From NCBI RefSeq assembly GCF_000966975.1, contig NZ_JZWV01000243.1, positions 1 to 18,392 of the forward strand: a stretch of DNA of 18,392 nucleotides. The letters are read 5' to 3'. The translations under genes and the position numbers were made by a program. Shown one piece after another: positions 6,819 to 18,286 of the stretch (its first letter is position 1; each line of letters starts with the position of its first letter). A model generated the notes under the pieces. That model saw only the letters and a program-made list of their open reading frames with translations, searched no databases and had not been told where the DNA came from. This DNA comes from Streptomyces katrae. Lineage in GTDB: Bacteria > Actinomycetota > Actinomycetes > Streptomycetales > Streptomycetaceae.

Positions 6819-9698
6819 TCAGCTGCAGCCGCTGGTGGAGCCGCAGCCCTCGCAGATGTAGCAGGAGCCGGCGCGCTGCATCTTCGTACCGCAGGAGAAG
6901 CAGAGCGGGGCGTCGGCGGAGACGCCCATCTGCATCTCGACCAGCTCGGCGTTGCTGTGCGCCGTCTTCGGGGCCGGGACCGGGACGACCGTCACCGGCT
7001 TGGCCACGGCGGCGACGGGCGCCGACTGGGCGAGGGACTCGGTGTCCAGCTCCTCCTCGAGCGGCTCGTAGGAACCGGTGTCGAGGTGGCGCTGGCGCTC
7101 CTCGGCGGAGTGGATGCCGAGGGCCGAGCGGGTCTCGAAGGGCAGGAAGTCCAGCGCCACGCGACGGAAGATGTAGTCGACGATCGACTGCGCCATCCGC
7201 ACGTCCGGGTCGTCCGTCATACCGGCCGGCTCGAAGCGCATGTTCGTGAACTTCGCGACGTACGTCTCCAGCGGGACGCCGTACTGCAGACCGACCGAGA
7301 CGGCGATCGAGAAGGCGTCCATCATGCCCGCGAGGGTCGAGCCCTGCTTGGACATCTTCAGGAAGACCTCACCCAGGCCGTCGTCCGGGTAGGAGTTGGC
7401 CGTCATGTAGCCCTCGGCGCCACCGACCGTGAAGGAGGTGGTGATGCCCGGGCGGCCCTTGGGGAGGCGCTTGCGGACCGGACGGTACTCGATGACCTTC
7501 TCGACCGCGGTGCGGATGGTCTCCTCGGCCTTCTCGGTGATCTCGGCCTTCTCCTCCTCCTTCTTCTTGGCGGAGAGGGGCTGGCCGACCTTGCAGTTGT
7601 CGCGGTAGATCGCGAGCGCCTTGACGCCCAGCTTCCACGCCTCGAAGTAGATCTCCTCGATCTCCTCGACGGTCGCCGTCTCCGGCATGTTGACCGTCTT
7701 GGAGATCGCACCGGAGATCCAGGGCTGGATCGCGGCCATCATGCGGACGTGGCCCATCGGGGAGATGGAGCGCTCGCCCATCGCGCAGTCGAAGACCTCG
7801 TAGTGCTCGGTCTTCAGACCGGGGGCGTCGACCACGTTGCCGTGCTCGGCGATGTGGGCGACGATCGCCTCGATCTGCTCCTCCTGGTAGCCCAGGCGGC
7901 GCAGGGCCTGCGGGACGGTGCCGTTGACGATCTGCATCGAGCCGCCGCCGACGAGCTTCTTGAACTTGACCAGGGCCAGGTCCGGCTCGACACCGGTGGT
8001 GTCGCAGGACATCGCGAGACCGATGGTGCCGGTCGGCGCGAGGACGGAGGCCTGGGCGTTGCGGAAGCCGTTCTTCTCACCGAGGCGCAGGACGTCCTGC
8101 CAGGCCTCGGTGGCCGCGGCCCAGATCGCGTTGTCCAGGTCGTCGGTGCGCGGCGCGACGGCGTTGGCGTCGGCGTGCTGCTTCATGACGCGCTTGTGCG
8201 AGTCGGCGTTGCGGGCGTAGCCGTCGTACGGGCCGACGATGGCGGCCAGCTCGGCGGAGCGCTTGTACGCGGTGCCGGTCATCAGCGAGGTGATCGACGC
8301 GGCGAGGGTGCGACCGCCGTCCGAGTCGTACGCGTGGCCGGTGGCCATCAGCAGGGCGCCGAGGTTGGCGTAGCCGATGCCCAGCTGGCGGAAGGCTCGG
8401 GTGTTCTCGCCGATCTTCTGCGTCGGGAAGTCCGCGAAGCAGATGGAGATGTCCATCGCGGTGATGACGAGCTCGACGACCTTGGCGAAGCGCTCGGCGT
8501 CGAAGGACTGGGCGCCCTTGCCGTCGTCGTGCAGGAACTTCATCAGGTTCAGCGAGGCGAGGTTGCAGGACGTGTTGTCCAGGTGCATGTACTCGCTGCA
8601 CGGGTTGGACGCGGTGATGCGGCCGGACTCGGGGCAGGTGTGCCAGTGGTTGATCACACCGTCGTACTGGATGCCCGGGTCGGCGCAGGCCCACGCGGCC
8701 TCGGCGAGCTTGCGGAAGAGCGCCTTGGCGTCGACCTTCTCGATGACCTCGCCGGTCATGCGGGCACGCAGGCCGAACTCGGTGCCGTTCTCGACTGCCG
8801 TCATGAACTCGTCGTTCACGCGGACGGAGTTGTTGGCGTTCTGGTACTGGACGGACGTGATGTCGTCGCCGCCCAGGTCCATGTCGAAGCCCGCGTCGCG
8901 CAGGGCGCGGATCTTCTCCTCCTCCTTCACCTTGGTGGCGATGAAGTCCTCGACGTCCGGGTGGTCCACGTCCAGGACGACCATCTTGGCCGCGCGGCGG
9001 GTGGCGCCGCCCGACTTGATCGTTCCGGCGGACGCGTCGGCGCCGCGCATGAAGGAGACGGGGCCGGAGGCGTTGCCGCCGGAGGAGAGGAGCTCCTTGG
9101 AGGAGCGGATGCGGGAGAGGTTCAGGCCGGCGCCGGAGCCGCCCTTGAAGATCATGCCCTCTTCCTTGTACCAGTCGAGGATCGACTCCATGGAGTCGTC
9201 GACGGAGAGGATGAAGCAGGCGGAGACCTGCTGCGGCTGGGGCGTGCCGACGTTGAACCACACCGGGGAGTTGAAGCTGAAGATCTGGTGCAGGAGGGCG
9301 TAGGTCAGCTCGTGCTCGAAGATCTCCGCGTCGGCGGGGGACGCGAAGTAGTCGTAGTCCTCGCCGGCCTTCGTGTACGTCTTGACGATGCGGTCGATCA
9401 GCTGCTTCAGGCCGGTCTCGCGCTGCGGCGTGCCGACGGCGCCGCGGAAGTACTTGCTGGTGACGATGTTGACCGCGTTCACCGACCAGAAGTCGGGGAA
9501 CTCGACGCCGCGCTGCTCGAAGTTGACCGAGCCGTCGCGCCAGTTCGTCATGACGACGTCACGGAGCTCCCAGTTCACCTCGTCGTACGGGTGCACGCCG
9601 GGGGTGGTGTGGATGCGCTCGATCCGCAGGCCGCCCTTGGCGGCCTTGGTCCCCTTGGCGCGGGAACCACGTGCCGAGCTGCTCGCCGTCTCTGTCAT
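6819..9698 (-). CDS. nrdJ: Adenosylcobalamin-dependent (class II) ribonucleoside-diphosphate reductase
   Basis: 959 aa. It reduces ribonucleotides to deoxyribonucleotides using a thiyl radical made from coenzyme B12, so it works with or without oxygen. The N-terminal part carries SACFILSVDDSM with C161, one of the redox cysteines. FKGGSGAGLNLSRIRSS (184-200) is the substrate/effector region. NPCSE (365-369) gives the radical cysteine C367 with N365 and E369, and C378 in NTSCNLASLNL is the second redox cysteine. The C-terminus bears a zinc-ribbon-like set of cysteines (C933, C936, C946, C949, C952, C958), typical of the long actinobacterial NrdJ and thought to pass electrons from thioredoxin. 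The ATG at 9696-9698 has GGGAGGC 7 bases upstream. It lies 134 bases after nrdR, with a hairpin between, and is expected to share nrdR control. Codon use is orderly and no damage is visible. Confidence 0.97.
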   Translation of the reverse strand: MTETASSSARGSRAKGTKAAKGGLRIERIHTTPGVHPYDEVNWELRDVVMTNWRDGSVNFEQRGVEFPDFWSVNAVNIVTSKYFRGAVGTPQRETGLKQLIDRIVKTYTKAGEDYDYFASPADAEIFEHELTYALLHQIFSFNSPVWFNVGTPQPQQVSACFILSVDDSMESILDWYKEEGMIFKGGSGAGLNLSRIRSSKELLSSGGNASGPVSFMRGADASAGTIKSGGATRRAAKMVVLDVDHPDVEDFIATKVKEEEKIRALRDAGFDMDLGGDDITSVQYQNANNSVRVNDEFMTAVENGTEFGLRARMTGEVIEKVDAKALFRKLAEAAWACADPGIQYDGVINHWHTCPESGRITASNPCSEYMHLDNTSCNLASLNLMKFLHDDGKGAQSFDAERFAKVVELVITAMDISICFADFPTQKIGENTRAFRQLGIGYANLGALLMATGHAYDSDGGRTLAASITSLMTGTAYKRSAELAAIVGPYDGYARNADSHKRVMKQHADANAVAPRTDDLDNAIWAAATEAWQDVLRLGEKNGFRNAQASVLAPTGTIGLAMSCDTTGVEPDLALVKFKKLVGGGSMQIVNGTVPQALRRLGYQEEQIEAIVAHIAEHGNVVDAPGLKTEHYEVFDCAMGERSISPMGHVRMMAAIQPWISGAISKTVNMPETATVEEIEEIYFEAWKLGVKALAIYRDNCKVGQPLSAKKKEEEKAEITEKAEETIRTAVEKVIEYRPVRKRLPKGRPGITTSFTVGGAEGYMTANSYPDDGLGEVFLKMSKQGSTLAGMMDAFSIAVSVGLQYGVPLETYVAKFTNMRFEPAGMTDDPDVRMAQSIVDYIFRRVALDFLPFETRSALGIHSAEERQRHLDTGSYEPLEEELDTESLAQSAPVAAVAKPVTVVPVPAPKTAHSNAELVEMQMGVSADAPLCFSCGTKMQRAGSCYICEGCGSTSGCS

Positions 9699-9801
9699 GC
9701 CGCCTGCCTCCCATATGCGGGCAAAAACGCCCTAAAGTGCCAGCGATATTCCGCGGCACAATGCTGTGTCTTGTATCTACGAATCTCGCCCTGCCGGCCG
9801 G

Positions 9802-9827
9802 CGGGGCCGCACTGCGCTGCGGCCCCG
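9802..9827 (-). terminator. Hairpin between nrdR and nrdJ
   Basis: CGGGGCCGCA (9802-9811) and TGCGGCCCCG (9818-9827) form a perfect 10-bp stem with a 6-base loop. It lies 5 bases past the nrdR stop on the minus strand. No U tract follows. It could be a partial terminator/attenuator setting the nrdR:nrdJ ratio, or an RNA-processing or stability element. Confidence 0.55.
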
Positions 9828-9832
9828 TGCGG

Positions 9833-10348
9833 TCAGTCGGCGGCGGAGGCGGGCACGGGGACGACCGGGGGGGTCCCTCCGTGCTCGCACTCATGGGGGT
9901 GAGGCCGCGGCTCGCGAAGTTCCGCGATGGCGGTCTCGAAGTCTTCAAGGGTGTCGAAAGCTTTGTACACGGACGCGAACCGCAGGTACGCGACCAGGTC
10001 GAGCTCCTGCAACGGGCCGAGTATGGCCAGACCCACGTCGTGGGTGGTCAGCTCGGCGCTCCCGGTGGCGCGCACCGCCTCCTCGACCCGCTGGCCGAGC
10101 TTGGCGAGGGCGTCCTCGGTGACCGGCCGCCCCTGGCACGCCTTGCGGACGCCAGAGATGACCTTGGTGCGGCTGAAGGGTTCGGTGACCCCGCTTCGCT
10201 TGATCACCATCAGCGAGGCCGTCTCCACCGTCGTGAAGCGACGGGAGCAGTCGGGGCACTGACGGCGTCGGCGGATCGACGTTCCGTCGTCGGTGGTGCG
10301 GCTGTCGACGACGCGGCTGTCGGGGTGCCTGCAGAAGGGGCAGTGCAT
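9833..10348 (-). CDS. nrdR: Transcriptional repressor NrdR
   Basis: 171 aa from the ATG at 10346-10348, preceded by AGGAGGGTGAGGG and placing the zinc ribbon at the very N-terminus as in all NrdR proteins. C3/C6 (MHCPFC) and C31/C34 (QCPDC) bind zinc and, with the RRRR segment before them, the DNA. An ATP-cone follows (about 46-136, beginning [17 protein letters not shown]), which senses ATP/dATP. NrdR represses ribonucleotide reductase operons when dATP is high. It lies upstream of nrdJ in one unit, and two box-like sites upstream suggest autoregulation. The tail after residue 145 is Pro/His-rich and variable. The reading frame continues 55 codons further upstream to 10513, but those codons overlap leader structure and I exclude them. 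Confidence 0.96.
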
Positions 10349-10390
10349 GGTTCCCTCACCCTCCTCTTGGCACGACTGAATGACCCCACG

Positions 10391-10431
10391 GAGCCCTTCG
10401 GCGACAGAGAGCGAGTCTCTGCCGGGGGCTC
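10391..10431 (-). repeat. Structured leader hairpin upstream of nrdR
   Basis: Nested arms: GAGCCC (10391-10396) with GGGCTC (10426-10431), CGG (10399-10401) with CCG (10422-10424), and CAGAGA (10405-10410) with TCTCTG (10416-10421), loop of 5. It lies about 43 bases upstream of the nrdR ATG, so it would form in the mRNA leader. Its function is unknown. Confidence 0.5.
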
Positions 10432-10481
10432 GTGAAGCAGCCACAAGCATATGCGATCCCGGAGGTCTGAGCCGACCGTGG

Positions 10482-10497
10482 ACCACAACTTGTGGGT
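10482..10497. promoter_or_regulatory. Candidate NrdR box, proximal
   Basis: ACCACAACTTGTGGGT is a 16-bp near-palindrome of the CACA...TGTG type seen in NrdR boxes. It is 31 bp from the distal site, i.e. about three helical turns. Paired boxes at this spacing are the usual NrdR arrangement. Confidence 0.6.
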
Positions 10498-10512
10498 TGC
10501 GACGCTCATCCA

Positions 10513-10528
10513 ACCACTAGATCTTGCG
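10513..10528. promoter_or_regulatory. Candidate NrdR box, distal
   Basis: ACCACTAGATCTTGCG resembles the NrdR consensus acaCwAtATaTwGtgt, with a central TAGATCTT. It is paired with the site at 10482-10497. Position upstream of nrdR-nrdJ supports the call. Confidence 0.6.
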
Positions 10529-10531
10529 TTG

Positions 10532-10788
10532 GGGAGGATTTGAGCCCCTACGCGTGTCGCGCGGCCCGATGGCCGGTTTCCGCGGGTTCCGGTGCCACAC
10601 TGGGCACGGCCCCGGGCGGCGGCGACCCAACCCGGAAGGGTACCGTAAGCAGCAGACGCGGTTCCGAATCCACGTTCGGACGACGGGCCGGCCCACACGC
10701 CTCCGCCCCGCCGTCCGGGCCGGCCATCCGCACCGGCCGGCCATACACCCACCGCTATAACCCGGGTGGGCGATCCGCGATTTTTCAC
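10532..10788. other. Non-coding stretch between the nrdR and lexA control regions
   Basis: About 257 bases between the distal NrdR box and the LexA box. Small open frames on both strands have no ribosome site and look like chance high-GC frames. Seen only: repeated GGCCGGCC blocks near 10687-10742 and a short CCCACC/GGTGGG inverted repeat at 10748-10770. No gene recognised; a small RNA cannot be excluded. Confidence 0.5.
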
Positions 10789-10789
10789 T

Positions 10790-10803
10790 CGAACGTGTGT
10801 TTG
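10790..10803. promoter_or_regulatory. LexA (SOS) box upstream of lexA
   Basis: CGAACGTGTGTTTG matches the actinobacterial/Gram-positive LexA box cGAACrnryGTTCg at all core positions but one (GTTT in place of GTTC). It sits 63 bases upstream of the lexA start and overlaps the candidate -35, fitting autorepression. Confidence 0.8.
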
Positions 10804-10830
10804 GCGCAACCTTTCGAAAGCAACTACCGT
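10801..10830 (+). promoter_or_regulatory. Candidate lexA promoter
   Basis: TTGGCG (10801-10806) and TACCGT (10825-10830), spacer 18 bp. A perfect palindrome CTTTCGAAAG (10811-10820) lies in the spacer. The match is by eye to loose consensus hexamers, supported by overlap with the LexA box. Confidence 0.4.
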
Positions 10831-10866
10831 TGTCCAGCTAGGGAGAACATTTCGAGAGGGGCCGAC

Positions 10867-11661
10867 GTGACCACCACCGCAGACAGTGCCACCATCACTG
10901 CCCAGAACCGCTCCCAGAGCCGACTCGAGCCGGTGCATGCCATGAGTGACGCAAGTCAGAATCCGGAGGCGGAGGCCACCGTGCGCCCCGCACGCTCGCT
11001 GCCAGGGCGGCCTCCAGGCATCCGCGCCGACAGCTCCGGGCTCACGGACCGGCAGCGGAGGGTCATCGAGGTCATCCGGGACTCCGTGCAGCGCCGCGGC
11101 TACCCGCCGTCGATGCGCGAGATCGGCCAGGCCGTCGGCCTCTCCAGCACCTCCTCCGTCGCCCACCAGCTGATGGCCCTGGAGCGCAAGGGCTTCCTGC
11201 GCCGCGACCCGCACCGCCCCCGCGCCTACGAGGTGCGCGGCTCCGACCAGCCCAGCTCGCAGCCCACCGACACCACCGGCAAGCCCGCCGCCTCCTACGT
11301 TCCCCTGGTCGGCCGGATCGCGGCCGGCGGCCCGATCCTCGCCGAGGAGTCGGTCGAGGACGTGTTCCCGCTCCCGCGCCAGCTCGTGGGCGACGGCGAG
11401 CTGTTCGTGCTCAAGGTCGTCGGCGACTCGATGATCGAGGCCGCCATCTGCGACGGCGACTGGGTCACCGTCCGTCGCCAGCCCGTCGCGGAGAACGGCG
11501 ACATCGTCGCCGCGATGCTGGACGGCGAGGCCACGGTCAAGCGCTTCAAGCGGGAGGACGGGCACGTGTGGCTGCTCCCTCACAATGCCGCCTACCAGCC
11601 CATCCCCGGCGACGAGGCGACCATCCTCGGCAAGGTGGTCGCGGTACTGCGCCGGGTCTGA
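10867..11661 (+). CDS. lexA: LexA repressor (SOS regulator, self-cleaving)
   Basis: 264 aa from the GTG at 10867, chosen for the GAGAGG 7 bases upstream; an ATG at 10942 (giving 239 aa) has no ribosome site. LexA represses DNA-repair genes until RecA filaments on damaged DNA trigger its autocleavage. The winged helix-turn-helix starts with [16 protein letters not shown] (59-74), with [20 protein letters not shown] as the recognition region. The cleavage site is A153-G154 (GRIAAGGP). The catalytic dyad is S188 (VVGDSMIEA) and K225 (EATVKRF). The ~45-residue N-terminal extension before the DNA-binding domain is usual in Streptomyces. An upstream LexA box implies autoregulation. The gene converges with the helicase gene over a shared terminator. 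Confidence 0.97.
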
Positions 11662-11750: not shown

Positions 11751-13737
11751 CTACTTGCCGTCGGCCTGGGCGCTCGCGTCGATCGCGGCCAGCGAGCGGC
11801 GGACCTGGTTGCGGTCCGTGGTGTACCAGAAGTCGGGCAGCGAGGCCCGCAGGAAGCTCCCGTACCGGGCCGTGGCCAGGCGCGGGTCGAGGACGGCGAC
11901 GACGCCCCGGTCGCCCGAGGCCCGTACGAGCCGGCCCGCGCCCTGCGCCATCAGCAGGGCCGGCCATCAGCAGGGCCGCATGCGTGGCGGCGACCGCCAT
12001 GAAACCGTTGCCGCCGTTCTCCTCGACCGCCTTCTGCCGCGCGCTCATCAGCGGGTCGTCGGGGCGAGGGAACGGGATCCGGTCCATGATCACCAGCTGG
12101 CAGCTGGGACCGGGCACGTCCACGCCCTGCCACAGGGAGAGCGTCCCGAACAGGCAGGTGCGCGGGTCGGCGGCGAAGTTCTTGATCAGCTCGCCCAGCG
12201 TCTCCTCGCCCTGGAGCAGGATCGGATTGTCGAGCCGGCCGCGCAGCTCCTCGGCGGCCGCCTTGGCCCCGCGCATGGAGGAGAAGAGGCCGAGGGTGCG
12301 GCCGCCGGCCGCCTCGATCAGCTCCGCCAGCTCGTCCATCATGTCGCCGCGGGTGCCCTCCCGGCCCGGGGTGGCCAGGTGCTTGGCGACGTAGAGGATG
12401 CCCTGCTTCGGGTAGTCGAACGGGGACCCGACGTCCAGCCCCCGCCAGAGCGGTACGTCCTCCCCCTCGACGCCCTCCGGGGAGAGGCCGAGGGAGGCCG
12501 CGACCCCGTTGAAGTCCCCGCCGAGCTTGAGGGTGGCGGAGGTGAGGACCACCGAGCGGTCCTCGAAGAGCTTCTCTCGCAGCAGCCCCGACACCGACAG
12601 CGGCGCGACCCGGAGGGTGGCACCGAACCGGTCGTGGCGCTCGTACCAGACGACGTCGTACTCCGAGCCGATCATGATCCGCTCCGCCACCGCGTGGACG
12701 TTCTCGACCGCGGCCAGGGCCTGCTTGCGGACGGCGTCCTCGTCGTGGACGGACTTGTCGCGGGTGGCACCGATCGCGGAGATCACGTTGCGCGCGGAAT
12801 CGCGCAGGGCGGCCAGCGCGTATCCGAGGTCGTCGGGAATCTGCTCCAGGCGGCCGGGAAGCGCCAGCTCCATCACCCGTTCGAAGGTCTCCGAGGCGGT
12901 CTGCAGGGAGTCCGCGGTCTTCTCGTCGACCAGCTTGGCGGCACGCTTCACGGCCCGGTTGACCTGCCCCGGGGTGAGCTCGCCGGTGGCCACGCCGGTG
13001 ACGCGGGAAACCAGCTCGTGGGCCTCGTCCACGATCAGCACCTCGTGCTGCGGCAGGACGGGCGCGCCCTCGATGGCGTCGATGGCGAGCAGTGCGTGGT
13101 TGGTGACCACCACATCGGCGAGCTTGGCCCGCTCACGGGCCGCCTCCGCGAAGCACTCGGCGCCGTACGCGCACTTCGTCGCCCCCAGGCACTCCCGGGA
13201 GGAGACCGAGACCTGGCTCCAGGCCTTGTCGGAGACTCCGGGGGTGAGGTCGTCGCGGTCGCCGGTCTCGGTCTCGTCCGCCCAGTCGCGCAGGCGCAGC
13301 AGGTCCTTGCCGAGCTTGCTGGTGGGGGCGGCCGCCTCGAACTGGTCGAAGAGGCCCTCCTCCTCGTCCTGCGGGGCGCCCTCGTGCAGCCGGTGGAGGC
13401 ACAGATAGTTCGACCGGCCCTTGAGCATGGCGAACTGCGGCCGTCGGCGCAGCTGCGGATGCAGCGCCTCGACCGTGCGCGGCAGGTCCCGCTCGACCAG
13501 CTGGCGCTGGAGCGCCAGCGTCGCCGTGGCCACGACGACGCGCTCGCCGTGCGCGAGGGCCGGCACCAGGTAGCCGAGGGACTTGCCGGTGCCGGTGCCG
13601 GCCTGGATGAGCCGGTGCGAGTTGTCGTCGATCGCTTCGGCGACGGCTTCGGCCATGGCGACCTGGCCGGGGCGCTCCGTGCCGCCGACGGCGGAGACGG
13701 CGGCGTGCAGCAGGTCGGAGAGGGAGGGCTTCGTCAT
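11751..13737 (-). pseudogene. DinG/XPD-like ATP-dependent DNA helicase, frameshifted by a 16-bp duplication
   Basis: A superfamily 2 Fe-S helicase of the DinG/YoaA type, expected to unwind damaged or hybrid DNA 5' to 3'. Visible: Walker A AGTGTGKS (46-53), DEAH (238-241), four Fe-S cysteines C114, C184, C190 and C196, and motif SATLKLGG. Up to residue ~591 the protein is intact. There the 16-bp sequence at 11947-11962 is repeated exactly at 11963-11978, shifting the frame. Removing one copy restores ALLMAQGAGRLVR (motif VI, QxxGRxxR) and a normal C-terminus ending at 11751, 656 aa in total. As it stands, the frame misses motif VI and runs on as nonsense to 10210, antisense through lexA. It is either a real inactivating change, a reversible one, or an assembly error. 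The ATG at 13735-13737 has only a weak ribosome site. Confidence 0.88.
11947..11978. repeat. Perfect 16-bp tandem duplication inside the helicase gene
   Basis: Two exact copies of GCCATCAGCAGGGCCG, at 11947-11962 and 11963-11978. Flanking bases do not extend the repeat in either direction. Sixteen is not a multiple of three, so the duplication shifts the reading frame. The form is that of replication slippage or short-homology duplication, with no transposon ends or target-site duplication. Confidence 0.97.
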
Positions 13738-13788: not shown

Positions 13789-15645
13789 TCACGGATGGTG
13801 CAGGGGGTTGGGCACGGTGCCGTGGGTGACCGCGTGGGGGCGGTCGGGGCGGTCCCGGTATCCGTCCTCGTGGAGCCGGTTGCGGTTGAGGCAGAGCCGG
13901 TCGATCCGCTCGGTCAGCAGGTCGAAGAGTTCGTAGCGGTCCTTGAGCTCGGGGAAACGCGCCTGGTGGCGGAGGATCTCCGCCCGTACGAGGGACCAGA
14001 ACTCGTCCTCGGGGACGCCGAGCCGGTCCTCGCACAGGGCGGAGAGGTAGCGGAAGACGCCGATGAACAGGCCGGAGTGGATGAACTGGGTGAGGAAGGC
14101 GGGCGGCTCGGTGAGCAGTGCCGCCCGGACGTCGGCGGGCATGGAGGCGTGCTCGGGCAGGGAGGTGCGGCTGATGTTGACGTCGTCCACGAAGTCCTTG
14201 ATCGCGAGGCGGACCGGCACGTCGTGCTCGTCGAAGATCACGACCGCGTTCTCTCCGTGCGGGGAGAAGACGGTGCCGTAGCGGTAGAGGAAGTGGAGCA
14301 GCGGGGGCAGCAGGGCCGTGAACAGGTGCTGGAGCCAGACCGCGGGCGTCAGACCGGAGCGGGCGACGAGCTCGGCGGTGAAGGAACGTCCACGCGGGTC
14401 GGTGTGGAGGAGTGAGGCGAGGGTACGGGCGCGCTCGCCGGGGGCGAGGTGGCGGCCGAGGGGTTCGCGCCAGATCGCACCGAGGAGTTCCTTGTACTGG
14501 TACGGGACCTCGGGGAGCCGGTCGTACACGGGGTGGCGGACGGTGACGGAGGCGACCTCGCCGAGCAGGACCACCCCGCATTCGTCGCGGAGGAAGGGGT
14601 CCGCGTCGCGCAGGGAGTGGATCCAGGCGGTCACCGCGGGGGCCGCCAGGGTGAGGTCGCTGGGCAGGCCCCGCCAGACCATGGTGTTGAAGACGGACAG
14701 CGGGAGTTTGACGCTGTGGCGGTCGGGGCGGGTGAGGTTGAGGAAGGTGCGGACGGACTGCTGCGGAAGCCGTTCGTCGGGGTCGGCGGGGAGCGGTACC
14801 AGCGCGCCGGAGGCGAGGGCCGGCGCGAAGAGGGGGAGGACGACCTCGTCCCACTGCCAGGGGTGGACGGGCAGGTAGAGGTAGCGGAGGGGGTCCAGGC
14901 CCCGGTCGCGGAGGGTCTGGTCGTAGGCGGCGCGGGTGACGGGGTCGAGTTCGGCCGCGTAGAGGCGCGCGGGGTCCTCCAGGCCGGCGCCGCCGCGGTA
15001 CTCGGCGAGGGAGGTGTGGGCGGCGAGCCAGGGCAGGCGTTGCGGGGTGCGGGCTTCGGGGGCCCAGGCGGCGGCGTCCGCTGCGGACCATCCGACGCGG
15101 CCCTTGTTGGGGACGAGCCAGGGGTGGCCCGTCTGGTGCCCTTCGAGGGCGGCGTAGTCCAGGTCGGCGAGGACGTCGGCGGTGAGGGCGTGGTGGTCGA
15201 GGCGGGCGTCGGCGGCGAGGGTGGCGCTGAGCTCGCGGATGAGGTGGCCGAGGGTGGGGCCGTCGAGGCCGAGGAGGGTGCGGGCGCGGACGAGGAAGCC
15301 GTAGGGGTCCGCGAAGGCTTCCGGCGGTTCGGCGGAGGGGGGTGGCGGGGTGAGGGTGATGGAGTCCGGCGCGACCTGCCAGCTGCCGTAGGCGCGGCGG
15401 CGGGCGCGGAACCCGAGGCTGCTGCCGTCGTCGAGTGTCAGGGTCCAGGCGTCGCCCGCGGCGGCCGGGGCCGGGGCGGGGGTGACGATCTCCTCGTACG
15501 CGAACTCGGAAAGCATCTTGGCGAGCAGCCTGCGGGCCGCGCCGTCCCAGGTCGGGCGGTTGAGTTCGGGAGGCGTGCACGGGTGCTGGGGCGACGGGGG
15601 GAGGGCGGGTTCCGCGGAGTCTGGGGCTGCGGGGAAATTCGGCAC
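13789..15645 (-). CDS. IucA/IucC-family NIS siderophore synthetase (second, DesD-like)
   Basis: 618 aa from the GTG at 15643-15645, with GAGGAG 4 bases upstream. NIS synthetases adenylate a carboxylate with ATP and condense it with an amine or alcohol to build hydroxamate or citrate siderophores. Family marks in order: the ATP-binding segment GHPWLVPNKGRVGW, LPVHPWQWDEV, QSVRTFLNLTRPDRHSVKLPLSVFN split around the second ATP contact, the FSPHGENAVV histidine motif, and IKDFVDDVNIS. A C-terminal FhuF-like region follows. The pattern resembles the type C (DesD/AlcC-like) branch, which joins or cyclises acylated hydroxydiamines, more than type A. It is the last gene of the operon, ending 51 bases before the helicase start. 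Its whole length is also open in the frame of the preceding GNAT gene. Confidence 0.93.
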   Translation of the reverse strand: MPNFPAAPDSAEPALPPSPQHPCTPPELNRPTWDGAARRLLAKMLSEFAYEEIVTPAPAPAAAGDAWTLTLDDGSSLGFRARRRAYGSWQVAPDSITLTPPPPSAEPPEAFADPYGFLVRARTLLGLDGPTLGHLIRELSATLAADARLDHHALTADVLADLDYAALEGHQTGHPWLVPNKGRVGWSAADAAAWAPEARTPQRLPWLAAHTSLAEYRGGAGLEDPARLYAAELDPVTRAAYDQTLRDRGLDPLRYLYLPVHPWQWDEVVLPLFAPALASGALVPLPADPDERLPQQSVRTFLNLTRPDRHSVKLPLSVFNTMVWRGLPSDLTLAAPAVTAWIHSLRDADPFLRDECGVVLLGEVASVTVRHPVYDRLPEVPYQYKELLGAIWREPLGRHLAPGERARTLASLLHTDPRGRSFTAELVARSGLTPAVWLQHLFTALLPPLLHFLYRYGTVFSPHGENAVVIFDEHDVPVRLAIKDFVDDVNISRTSLPEHASMPADVRAALLTEPPAFLTQFIHSGLFIGVFRYLSALCEDRLGVPEDEFWSLVRAEILRHQARFPELKDRYELFDLLTERIDRLCLNRNRLHEDGYRDRPDRPHAVTHGTVPNPLHHP

Positions 15646-15646
15646 G

Positions 15647-16426
15647 GGACTCCTCGAGGATCGGGAACTCCGCGGTGGCCCGCGGAGTTTTCGAAGTGAG
15701 AGGCGTGGAGGGACGGTTGCGCAGCGACCCCTCCCGGATCATCAGGGCGGCGCGCTTCCCGGGGAGTTCGATTTCCGTGGCGTAGCGGAAACCGGCGGCG
15801 AGGAAGGCTGATACGGAGGGGGTGTTGCGGATGTCCGGTTCGGCGATGACCCGTGTGCAGCGGGGACGGTTGTCGAAGACGAGCTCGGTGACGGCGCGCA
15901 GCAGCGTGGTCCCCAGGCCCCGGCCGCGGTTCGTGCCGTCTCCGATCAGCAGGTGGATACCCGTGTCGTGGGGGCGCGCCGGGTAGTGGCGGGAGACCGG
16001 GTCGAGGTCGGCCCGGTAGATCTCCCAGTAGCTCATCGGGGTGCCGTCGAGTACGCCGAGGCAGGGGATGCTGCGGCCGTCGCCGTCGAGTTGGGTCCGC
16101 AGGTGGGCGGCGGTGACGGCGGAGGCGCCGGCCAGCTCCCAGTAGGCGGCGACGTCGGGGTCGTTCATCCAGCGGGTGAGGAGCTGCAGGTCCCGGCCCG
16201 GCCGTACCGGTTCGAGGCGGAAGGCTCCGGCCGGCGTGGGGAGGGCGCCCCAGCCTGCGGGTGAGTCGAGGAGGTCCGCCTCGGCGAGCAGGGGCAGCAG
16301 TCCGACGGCGAAGCGGTGTTCGGCGGTCTGGTGGTGGGCGGTCTCGTAGTGGGCGGTCTCGTAGTGGGCGGTCTCGTGGCGGGCGGGACCGGTCGCGGTG
16401 CTGGTGGTCGTTTCGGCGGGGGGCAT
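15647..16426 (-). CDS. Siderophore-type GNAT N-acyltransferase, no stop codon before the next gene
   Basis: The ATG at 16424-16426 follows GGAGAAGAG, 30 bases after synthetase 1. After a repetitive N-terminus (ETAHY units, about residues 17-35) comes a GNAT domain of the IucB/RhbD/AlcB type (Acetyltransf_8). It runs from FRLEPVRPG to LMIREG (about 69-232), with LLTRWMNDPDVAAYW, YWEIYRADLDPVSRHY and the CoA loop GRGLGTTLL. Such enzymes acylate the N-hydroxylated amine before NIS condensation. The left coordinate given is only where synthetase 2 starts: the frame has no stop there and stays open to 13751, past the end of synthetase 2. A lost stop or small frameshift near 15650-15730 is likely, since family members end soon after LMxRE. 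The other possibility is a genuine long overlap. Confidence 0.75.
15666..15689 (-). repeat. Perfect hairpin before NIS synthetase 2
   Basis: AACTCCGCGG (15666-15675) and CCGCGGAGTT (15680-15689) form a 10-bp stem with a 4-base loop. In the mRNA it lies 20 bases before the synthetase 2 GTG, just outside its ribosome site, in the stretch where the GNAT gene should end. It may affect coupling, processing or partial termination. Confidence 0.6.
16322..16381. repeat. 15-bp minisatellite encoding a pentapeptide repeat
   Basis: Four consecutive 15-bp units. The two central ones (16337-16351, 16352-16366) are identical (GGCGGTCTCGTAGTG); the outer two diverge by a few bases. The units keep the frame and encode repeated ETAHY-type pentapeptides at the GNAT N-terminus. 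Confidence 0.9.
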
Positions 16427-16456
16427 CGGGCTCTTCTCCGTGTCGGTGGGAGCGCG

Positions 16457-18286
16457 TCAGTCGTGGAGGGGGTTGGTGATGGTGACGTAGACGGACTGCG
16501 TCTCGACGGGGCCGACGAGCTCGTCGAGGCCGCCCAGGCGGGTCAGCAGGTTCGCCTTGCAGCGGAGGGTGGGTGAGTCCAGCAGCTGCGCGGGGAGCGG
16601 GCCGAGGTCTGCGGCCTTGCCGAGGAACCGGCGGAAGGCGGCGAGGAGTACGCGCTCGTCGGCGAGCCGCTGGGATCCGAAGGCCCCGATGAGGCCCAGC
16701 ACGTTGTTGATGCCGAGGTAGTAGGCGAAGCGTTCGTCGGTGACGGCGTCGGGGACGAAGGTGTCGCTGGCGCGGCCGATGCCGGGGAGCCGGTGTTCCA
16801 GTTCGGTGCGCCGGGAGTCGCTGAAGTAGTACCACCGGGAGTCGCGGAAGTAGTACCCCTGGTTGTCGCGGAAGCGGCCGCCGACGGGCCAGCCGGCGCG
16901 GTCGAGGAGGACCAGGGTGTTCTGCTGGTGGGCTTCGAGGGCGATACCGGCGAGCGCGTCGAAGGCCAGGACGGGCAGGACGACGTGGTCGAGGTAGCGC
17001 AGGAACCACTCGGTGGCGACGGCGGAGGCGGGGCGGCCGGTGCTGGTGGCGAGCCGGGAGACGGTGTCGGCGAGCCGGGAGCGCATCGTGTTGCGTCCGG
17101 GCCACGGGCGGGGGGCTGTGAGTGCGGCGACGCAGACGGCGTCGTCGTCGGAGCGGAAGGGGTTGTGGCGCAGCAGGGCGTCGAGTCCGGGTACGGGGTT
17201 GCCGGCCGGGGTGTCGACGGCGACCCAGGCGGGGTCGCGGACGATGTCGAAACCGGGATGCGCGCTCTGCCACTGCTCGGCGAGGCCGGTGCGGAGCAGC
17301 CGGTGCACCTCGACGCCTCGGTGGAGTTCCTTGCGGAGGTTCTCGCGGCGGGAGTTGGTGATGCGCAGGCCCAGGGAGAGCTTGAGCATCGCCGGGGTGC
17401 CGGGCCGGTGGACGGTGCGGACGGAGGAGGTGGGGTACCAGGGGGCTCCGTGGGCGCCCAGGTCGGTCAGGAGTCCGGCGTCGCGGAGGGCTGCGACGGC
17501 GGGGCGCTGGAGGAGGTCGCGGGCCTGCCAGGGGTGCAGGGGAAGGGGGGTGGTGCCGGCGGGCAGCGGGAGCCCGGCGGCGAGTCGGGCGAGGAGCTGG
17601 GCGGCGGAGACGGGGCGGCCGCGTTCGGTCCAGGCGGAGTCCGTGGCGAGGGCGGTCGGTGCGACGGCGAACCAGTGCAGGGGGAAGGAGCCGTGGAGTT
17701 CGGGTGAGTAGCGGTCGGCTTCGGCTTCGGAGAGCCCTTCGCGGCTCTTGGGGTCCGGTTGGAGGGGGTGGCCGAGGAGGAGGGACTGTTCGGCGGTGAG
17801 GAAGAGGTCCCCGGCGATGGGGGCGGGCGCGGTGGGGCGGCGGCGCCGGTCGGCGATGAACTCGGCGGTGCGGCGTACCGAGTCGGCGACCCGGCCGACG
17901 AGGTCGGCACCGCGGCCGTTGCCTTCGCGGGCGAGGAGGGCGGCGAGGGTGACGGCGTCCACTGCGGGGGCTTCGGCGGGGGCCCCTTCGAGACGGGCGG
18001 GGGCGAAGCGGTGCCAGCCGGCCTCGGACCAGTGCCGGACGGGAACGAGCAGGGTGGCGGCGGATGCGGGAAGGGGGATGCGGAGCAGGGTGCCGGGGGG
18101 CCCGTCGGGGCGGCCGATGCCGCTCTCGCGGACCCAGCACCGCAGCAGGTTCTCCACAGTGGCGGCCTCGGCGGCGGTGGCCGGGTCGGGGTGGTCCAGC
18201 AGGTCGGGCAGCGCGGCCGGCTCGGGCCCGACGGGTCCGGTCCCGCCCACCCGGGGCCGGGGGGTGCCGGCCTTCTGGCGGGGCAC
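16457..18286 (-). CDS. IucA/IucC-family NIS siderophore synthetase (first)
   Basis: 609 aa from a GTG at 18284-18286, but the frame is open beyond it to the window edge and the GTG has no clear ribosome site, so the true start may lie outside. Family marks: VENLLRCWVRE near the start, GHPLQPDPKSREGLS (ATP-binding HPxxPxxKxRxG), LPLHPWQARDLL, YPTSSVRTVH, MLKLSLGLRITNSRREN, EAHQQNTLVLLD, and FRDNQGYYF. The TNxRREN and EAHxQN signatures are diagnostic for NIS synthetases; the type (A or B) cannot be fixed by eye. It differs clearly from synthetase 2, so the two probably do successive condensations. It ends 30 bases before the GNAT start. Monooxygenase, decarboxylase or transport genes expected for the pathway are not in the window. 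Confidence 0.9.
   Translation of the reverse strand: MPRQKAGTPRPRVGGTGPVGPEPAALPDLLDHPDPATAAEAATVENLLRCWVRESGIGRPDGPPGTLLRIPLPASAATLLVPVRHWSEAGWHRFAPARLEGAPAEAPAVDAVTLAALLAREGNGRGADLVGRVADSVRRTAEFIADRRRRPTAPAPIAGDLFLTAEQSLLLGHPLQPDPKSREGLSEAEADRYSPELHGSFPLHWFAVAPTALATDSAWTERGRPVSAAQLLARLAAGLPLPAGTTPLPLHPWQARDLLQRPAVAALRDAGLLTDLGAHGAPWYPTSSVRTVHRPGTPAMLKLSLGLRITNSRRENLRKELHRGVEVHRLLRTGLAEQWQSAHPGFDIVRDPAWVAVDTPAGNPVPGLDALLRHNPFRSDDDAVCVAALTAPRPWPGRNTMRSRLADTVSRLATSTGRPASAVATEWFLRYLDHVVLPVLAFDALAGIALEAHQQNTLVLLDRAGWPVGGRFRDNQGYYFRDSRWYYFSDSRRTELEHRLPGIGRASDTFVPDAVTDERFAYYLGINNVLGLIGAFGSQRLADERVLLAAFRRFLGKAADLGPLPAQLLDSPTLRCKANLLTRLGGLDELVGPVETQSVYVTITNPLHD

What the first reader, a model, noticed from the sequence alone, without database searches (positions are those of the whole stretch)
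11947..11978. A perfect 16-bp tandem duplication destroys helicase motif VI
Two exact, adjacent copies of a 16-bp sequence shift the frame at codon ~592 of an otherwise intact DinG-like helicase. Deleting one copy restores the motif-VI segment QGAGRLVR and a proper C-terminus ending at 11751. The rest of the gene shows no decay, so the event is very recent, reversible, or an assembly artefact. A tandem repeat of this kind can be lost by slippage, so the strain could carry an on/off allele of a DNA-repair helicase next to lexA.
Basis: partly seen in the sequence, partly recalled or inferred. Interest (0 to 1): 0.8.

Follow-up and report, generated by a model that had tools for sequence, protein, structure and literature searches.

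The report
Assembly-made duplication in a DinG-like helicase
A 16-letter stretch appears twice in a row and breaks a DNA-repair helicase gene in this Streptomyces draft genome, but similar gene-breaking duplications recur in the draft and some neighbouring contigs carry unmerged overlaps, so it is most likely an assembly error and not a genetic switch.

Summary
Window 11947-11978 holds two exact, adjacent 16-bp copies that shift the frame of a DinG-like helicase (minus strand, start 13737). The downstream piece, ALLMAQGAGRLVR...ADGK, is intact in another frame. All 109 relatives' loci compared have one copy. The two-copy junction occurs in 1 of 392 genus genomes searched, this one.

The on/off-allele reading is not supported. 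The window is one whole contig of a 1873-contig draft. In the 0.53 readable Mb sampled, 6 of 12 unexplained same-strand frame jumps sit on a perfect two-copy duplication (units 10-22 bp), against 0 of 10 in 2.2 Mb of control Streptomyces DNA. In the same draft, 7 of 30 consecutively numbered readable contig pairs overlap exactly end to start by 10-32 bp, against 0 of 10,964 other end pairings. The assembly thus leaves short overlaps unmerged. A join of that kind closed without a gap would write the overlap twice, which is what is seen here.

Verdict: assembly artefact, most likely (0.9). No reads could be seen, so this is not proof. The strain probably carries an ordinary intact helicase gene next to lexA.

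The parts
11947..11962 (.). one copy of the 16-bp unit
   Evidence: identical to the adjacent copy
11963..11978 (.). the other copy of the 16-bp unit; 109 of 109 relatives' loci have one copy only
11979..13737 (-). upstream piece of the DinG-like helicase (586 aa): DEAD domain with AGTGTGKS (Walker A, name recalled) and most of Helicase_C_2
   Evidence: Pfam PF00270, and PF13307 profile positions 2-122 of 170
11751..11960 (-). downstream piece in another frame (ALLMAQGAGRLVR...ADGK, then stop), like the C-terminus of relatives; its first codons lie within the repeat
   Evidence: frame 2; relatives' tails printed for seven of 80 loci
10492..11661 (+). lexA, convergent neighbour; the ORF list's first start codon is probably upstream of the real one, since the DNA-binding domain begins at residue 181
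   Evidence: PF00717 and PF01726

Best explanation
The second copy is an assembly artefact. During assembly of this fragmented Streptomyces draft, two contig ends that really overlap by 16 bp were placed next to each other and joined without merging the overlap, so the 16 bp was written twice. Shown: the exact duplication; its absence from the relatives compared; an excess of gene-breaking perfect duplications in the sampled part of the draft; and unmerged exact overlaps of 10-32 bp between some consecutive contigs of the same draft. Inferred: that this particular duplication arose at such a join, and therefore that the strain has an ordinary intact helicase gene. Which program did it is unknown.
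For: (1) 109 of 109 relatives' loci (L005-L113; some may be one genome held twice) align with 16 gap positions here. In 80 of 80 named Streptomyces loci the frame runs on to a stop 610-628 aa after AGTGTGKS, and 79 of 80 hold QGAGRL. The 120 listed of 7998 scored protein relatives are 655-674 aa long (capped list). (2) Degenerate exact pattern for the two-copy junction: 1 of 392 genus genomes, the window's own. (3) In the G000 sample (590,491 bases, 532,977 readable), 6 of 12 same-strand frame jumps without a nearby stop lie on a perfect tandem pair of at least 10 bp: window 16 bp, L153 14, L180 10, L189 22, L192 10, L247 16. Controls: 0 of 8 in complete G012/G005, 0 of 1 in fragmented G017/G028, 0 of 1 in the 80 dinG-region loci. 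Fisher p = 0.015; leaving out the window itself, 5 of 11 against 0 of 10, p = 0.035; against the randomly placed controls only, 5 of 11 against 0 of 9, p = 0.038. (4) Two of the five other break sites had relatives to align: at L189 12 of 12 loci lack 17-23 bp (exactly 22 in 9); at L192 the 4 best of the loci cut lack 9-10 bp (10 in 3). (5) 7 of 30 consecutive readable contig pairs overlap exactly end to start by 10, 16, 17, 18, 18, 19 and 32 bp, all in the given orientation; 0 of 10,964 other end pairings reach 10 bp and 2 reach 8; four further consecutive pairs share 13-24 bp words at or near their ends.
Against: No reads, coverage or read pairs could be examined. [quoted passage not shown] The window's own readable neighbour pair, C1210/C1211, shows no overlap; C1212 is masked. 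23 of 30 consecutive pairs show no exact end overlap. Two other fragmented drafts gave 0 of 9 readable consecutive pairs, which does not differ significantly from 7 of 30 (p = 0.17). Overall density of perfect tandem pairs is not raised in this draft, and the total rate of unexplained frame jumps is similar in G000 (12 in 459 kb coding) and in the complete genomes (8 in 331 kb). Most of the control bases (1.64 of 2.2 Mb) are the same conserved region from 80 genomes. Three of the six sites (L153, L180, L247) had no alignable relative in the 12 genomes searched.
Confidence: 0.9

Rival explanations
1. A real, recent loss-of-function mutation: a 16-bp tandem duplication arose by strand slippage in this strain or its culture and disrupts the helicase near motif VI.
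For: The duplication is exact and both pieces of the gene are undecayed. The local stretch folds more stably than most (rank 55 of 600 random 80-mers), and the sequence shows GCCCTGC...GCAGGGC arms, which could promote slippage.
Against: Five more gene-breaking perfect duplications in 0.51 readable Mb of the same draft outside the window would scale to about 78 in 8.05 Mb, while the controls show none. The run is exactly two copies, without border microhomology. Unmerged contig overlaps supply a simpler source.
Confidence: 0.08
2. A reversible on/off (phase-variable) allele of the helicase, switched by gain and loss of one 16-bp copy.
For: A perfect tandem pair with a unit not divisible by 3 could in principle revert. 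No tool result supports this specifically.
Against: No repeat at the site in the relatives compared: 109 of 109 single-copy, 1 of 392 with the junction. The same kind of pair coincides with frame jumps in other genes of the draft.
Confidence: 0.01
3. The frame-shifted product is functional: the long alternative C-terminus, antisense through lexA, is a real new protein end.
For: The frame stays open to 1175 aa.
Against: Long open frames in wrong frames are routine in this DNA (72 ORFs of at least 90 aa in 18.4 kb). 80 of 80 named relatives end in the ordinary way. The codon-usage caller puts the coding signal in the other frame after the repeat.
Confidence: 0.01

Closest known systems
Unmerged contig-end overlaps ('duplicated overlapping contigs', Kelley and Salzberg 2010, PMC2864568; passages seen, not the whole text)
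   Same: Nearby contigs overlap at their ends and the overlap is left as two copies, which looks like a recent duplication.
   Different: Theirs come from heterozygous diploid genomes, are much longer and lie on separate contigs; here the overlaps are 10-32 bp in a bacterial draft and this one lies inside a contig.
DinG/XPD-like superfamily 2 helicase of Streptomyces (PF00270 + PF13307; superfamily name recalled)
   Same: Domains, up to 97% identity over 586 residues to S. lavendulae and relatives; lexA neighbour.
   Different: The 16-bp second copy and the frame shift that it causes.
Phase-variable genes switched by tandem-repeat copy number (recalled)
   Same: A repeat whose copy number decides the frame.
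   Different: No repeat at the site in any relative compared and no sign of variation; one event in one draft.

Membership tests
Unmerged-overlap assembly artefact | Same assembly leaves neighbouring contig ends overlapping without merging | tested here: met
   7 of 30 consecutive readable pairs, 0 of 10,964 other end pairings. Weak control: 0 of 9 readable consecutive pairs in drafts G017/G028, 10 further control pairs masked, p = 0.17
Unmerged-overlap assembly artefact | Similar exact duplications recur at unrelated loci of the assembly and are absent from relatives | tested here: met
   six sites; three of them, the window included, checked against relatives; three not alignable
Unmerged-overlap assembly artefact | Reads or read pairs are consistent only with one copy | not testable with these tools
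   no reads available
DinG-like helicase | DEAD/helicase domain with Walker A and Helicase_C_2 domain | tested here: met
   PF00270 1.2e-9, PF13307 2.8e-18 on the upstream piece
DinG-like helicase | QGAGR (motif VI, name recalled) in the same frame as the rest | tested here: not met
   present but in another frame as the draft is written
Phase-variable repeat-switched gene | Repeat kept or varying among relatives | tested here: not met
   109 of 109 single-copy; 1 of 392 with the junction
Phase-variable repeat-switched gene | Mixture of copy numbers in one population | not testable with these tools
   needs reads or PCR

The most novel reading that the evidence does not exclude
The duplication is real, and this strain carries a slippage-prone, revertible loss-of-function allele of its DinG-like helicase, perhaps as one of dozens of recent short tandem duplications made by an unusual mutator state.
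Probability: 0.03. Interest if true: 0.55.

Novelty: not a real feature. Interest (0 to 1): 0.08.

Why it matters
It matters mainly as a warning. Perfect short tandem duplications that break conserved genes in fragmented drafts can be unmerged contig overlaps, and such sites can pass for pseudogenes or phase-variable alleles. Checking consecutive contig ends for short exact overlaps is a quick test that needs no reads.

Tried and rejected
Raised overall tandem-repeat density in this draft: tested and not found; only the frame-breaking subset differs (5 of 13 in the first sample, 0 of 31 in the 80 control loci). One more pair in that sample, 22 bp at L140 3857, shows a matching frame change but falls below the score limit and was not counted.

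Generally poor indel quality: the caller's rate of unexplained frame jumps is about that of the complete genomes. Of the six G000 jumps not counted as tandem, L176 has 7- and 8-bp pairs nearby and the others none.

Hairpin-driven break: the six sites rank 24, 43, 55, 87, 139 and 193 of 600 random 80-mers for fold stability (the site stretches were 74-80 bases long and hold part of the repeat). Suggestive only, and it fits slippage as well as assembly gaps.

Word search near contig ends: four consecutive pairs counted as near-end overlaps; a fifth (73/74, 12 bp, far from both ends) was dropped as chance-like; no control was run for this looser search.

Relatives for the L153, L180 and L247 sites and for the C50/C51 join: no clean full-length match in 12 genomes. 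Literature: searches were seen as listings, one search found no paper; of the papers only passages of PMC2864568 were seen. I found no paper on this exact artefact in bacteria in those searches, which is no proof of absence. One search printed nothing because of unsuitable BLAST settings; one search repeated it with defaults. In one search some relatives were on the wrong strand; one search replaced it.

Full report
What is there. Window 11947-11978 is two exact adjacent copies of a 16-bp unit, run length exactly 32 bp. It lies in a minus-strand gene starting at 13737. The 586-aa piece before the repeat matches PF00270 and PF13307 and is up to 97% identical to the protein of named Streptomyces such as S. 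lavendulae. The conserved continuation, with QGAGRLVR and an end ADGK, lies in another frame. A codon-usage frame caller lists no other same-strand frame jump without a nearby stop in the window.

Relatives. In 80 of 80 named loci the frame runs from AGTGTGKS to a stop 610-628 aa later, and 79 of 80 hold QGAGRL. A degenerate exact pattern for the two-copy junction hits 1 of 392 genus genomes, the window's own; a two-copy junction with other codons would have been missed. The second copy is private to this record as far as was searched. Records very near the window's genome may be left out of the named collection (note).

Is the event special to this gene? No. The window is one complete contig of an 8.05-Mb draft in 1873 contigs. 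I sampled 590,491 bases of it, 532,977 readable. Among tandem pairs of at least 10 bp with a unit not divisible by 3, the first sample (462,248 bases) gave 5 of 13 that break a coding frame, against 0 of 31 in the 80 control loci. With a frame caller over all samples, 6 of 12 unexplained same-strand frame jumps in the draft coincide with a perfect tandem pair of 10-22 bp. The figure is 0 of 8 in 0.40 Mb of two complete genomes, 0 of 1 in 0.18 Mb of two other fragmented drafts, and 0 of 1 in 1.64 Mb of dinG-region loci. Fisher p = 0.015; without the window itself, which was picked for its repeat, p = 0.035; without it and against the randomly placed controls only, p = 0.038. The chance that all sites fall in the draft's share of readable bases is 5e-5 with every control, 2e-4 without the window, and 0.02 without the window and with the random controls only. 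Two of the other five sites could be aligned with relatives and are single-copy there: 12 of 12 loci lack 17-23 bp at the 22-bp site, and the 4 best loci lack 9-10 bp at a 10-bp site. The remaining three had no alignable relative. The total rate of unexplained jumps is about the same in the complete genomes, so general sequence quality is not the cause.

Where the duplications come from. Some consecutively numbered contigs of this draft overlap. Of 30 consecutive pairs with both contigs readable, 7 share an exact end-to-start overlap of 10, 16, 17, 18, 18, 19 or 32 bp in the given orientation; 0 of 10,964 other end pairings reach 10 bp (these include reverse-complement twins, so they are not all independent). 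Four more consecutive pairs share 13-24 bp words at or near the ends. The window's own left neighbour shows no overlap and its right neighbour is masked. In two other fragmented drafts 0 of 9 readable consecutive pairs overlap, with 10 more masked; this control is too small to differ from 7 of 30 (p = 0.17), and whether those drafts list contigs in chromosome order is unknown. I infer that consecutive numbers are often neighbours on the chromosome and that real short overlaps were left unmerged. If such a join is written without a gap, the result is a perfect duplication of about 10-32 bp at an arbitrary place, often breaking a gene. The six sites look like that. A published analogue is the duplicated overlapping contig of Kelley and Salzberg (PMC2864568; passages seen), although that work concerns long, diploid cases and says that duplications inside a contig are rarely mis-assembled.

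Conclusion. The most likely account is an assembly artefact (0.90; lowered from 0.92 in my draft after the statistics were redone without the window and against random controls only). A real recent slippage mutation is possible (0.08). An on/off allele has no support beyond the bare presence of a repeat (0.01). No reads were available, so this is inference from the assembly's own fingerprints and from relatives, and reads would settle it.

Noticed in passing
window 16334-16377: A 15-bp in-frame repeat, 2.9 copies, near the start of a GNAT acetyltransferase-like gene, giving HETAHYETAHYETAHHQTA. It could be natural.
   Followed up: partly
window 13789-18286: Two IucA/IucC-FhuF siderophore synthetase genes with an Acetyltransf_8 gene between them; most of the stretch aligns in the 12 of 30 relatives' loci printed.
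   Followed up: partly
window 6819-11661: Class II ribonucleotide reductase, nrdR and lexA next to the helicase, aligning over nearly the whole stretch in the 12 loci printed.
   Followed up: partly
L189 1073-1116, L192 6067-6086, L153 10572-10599, L180 275-294, L247 1926-1957: Further perfect duplications in the same draft that coincide with frame jumps; probably annotated as pseudogenes or split genes.
   Followed up: partly
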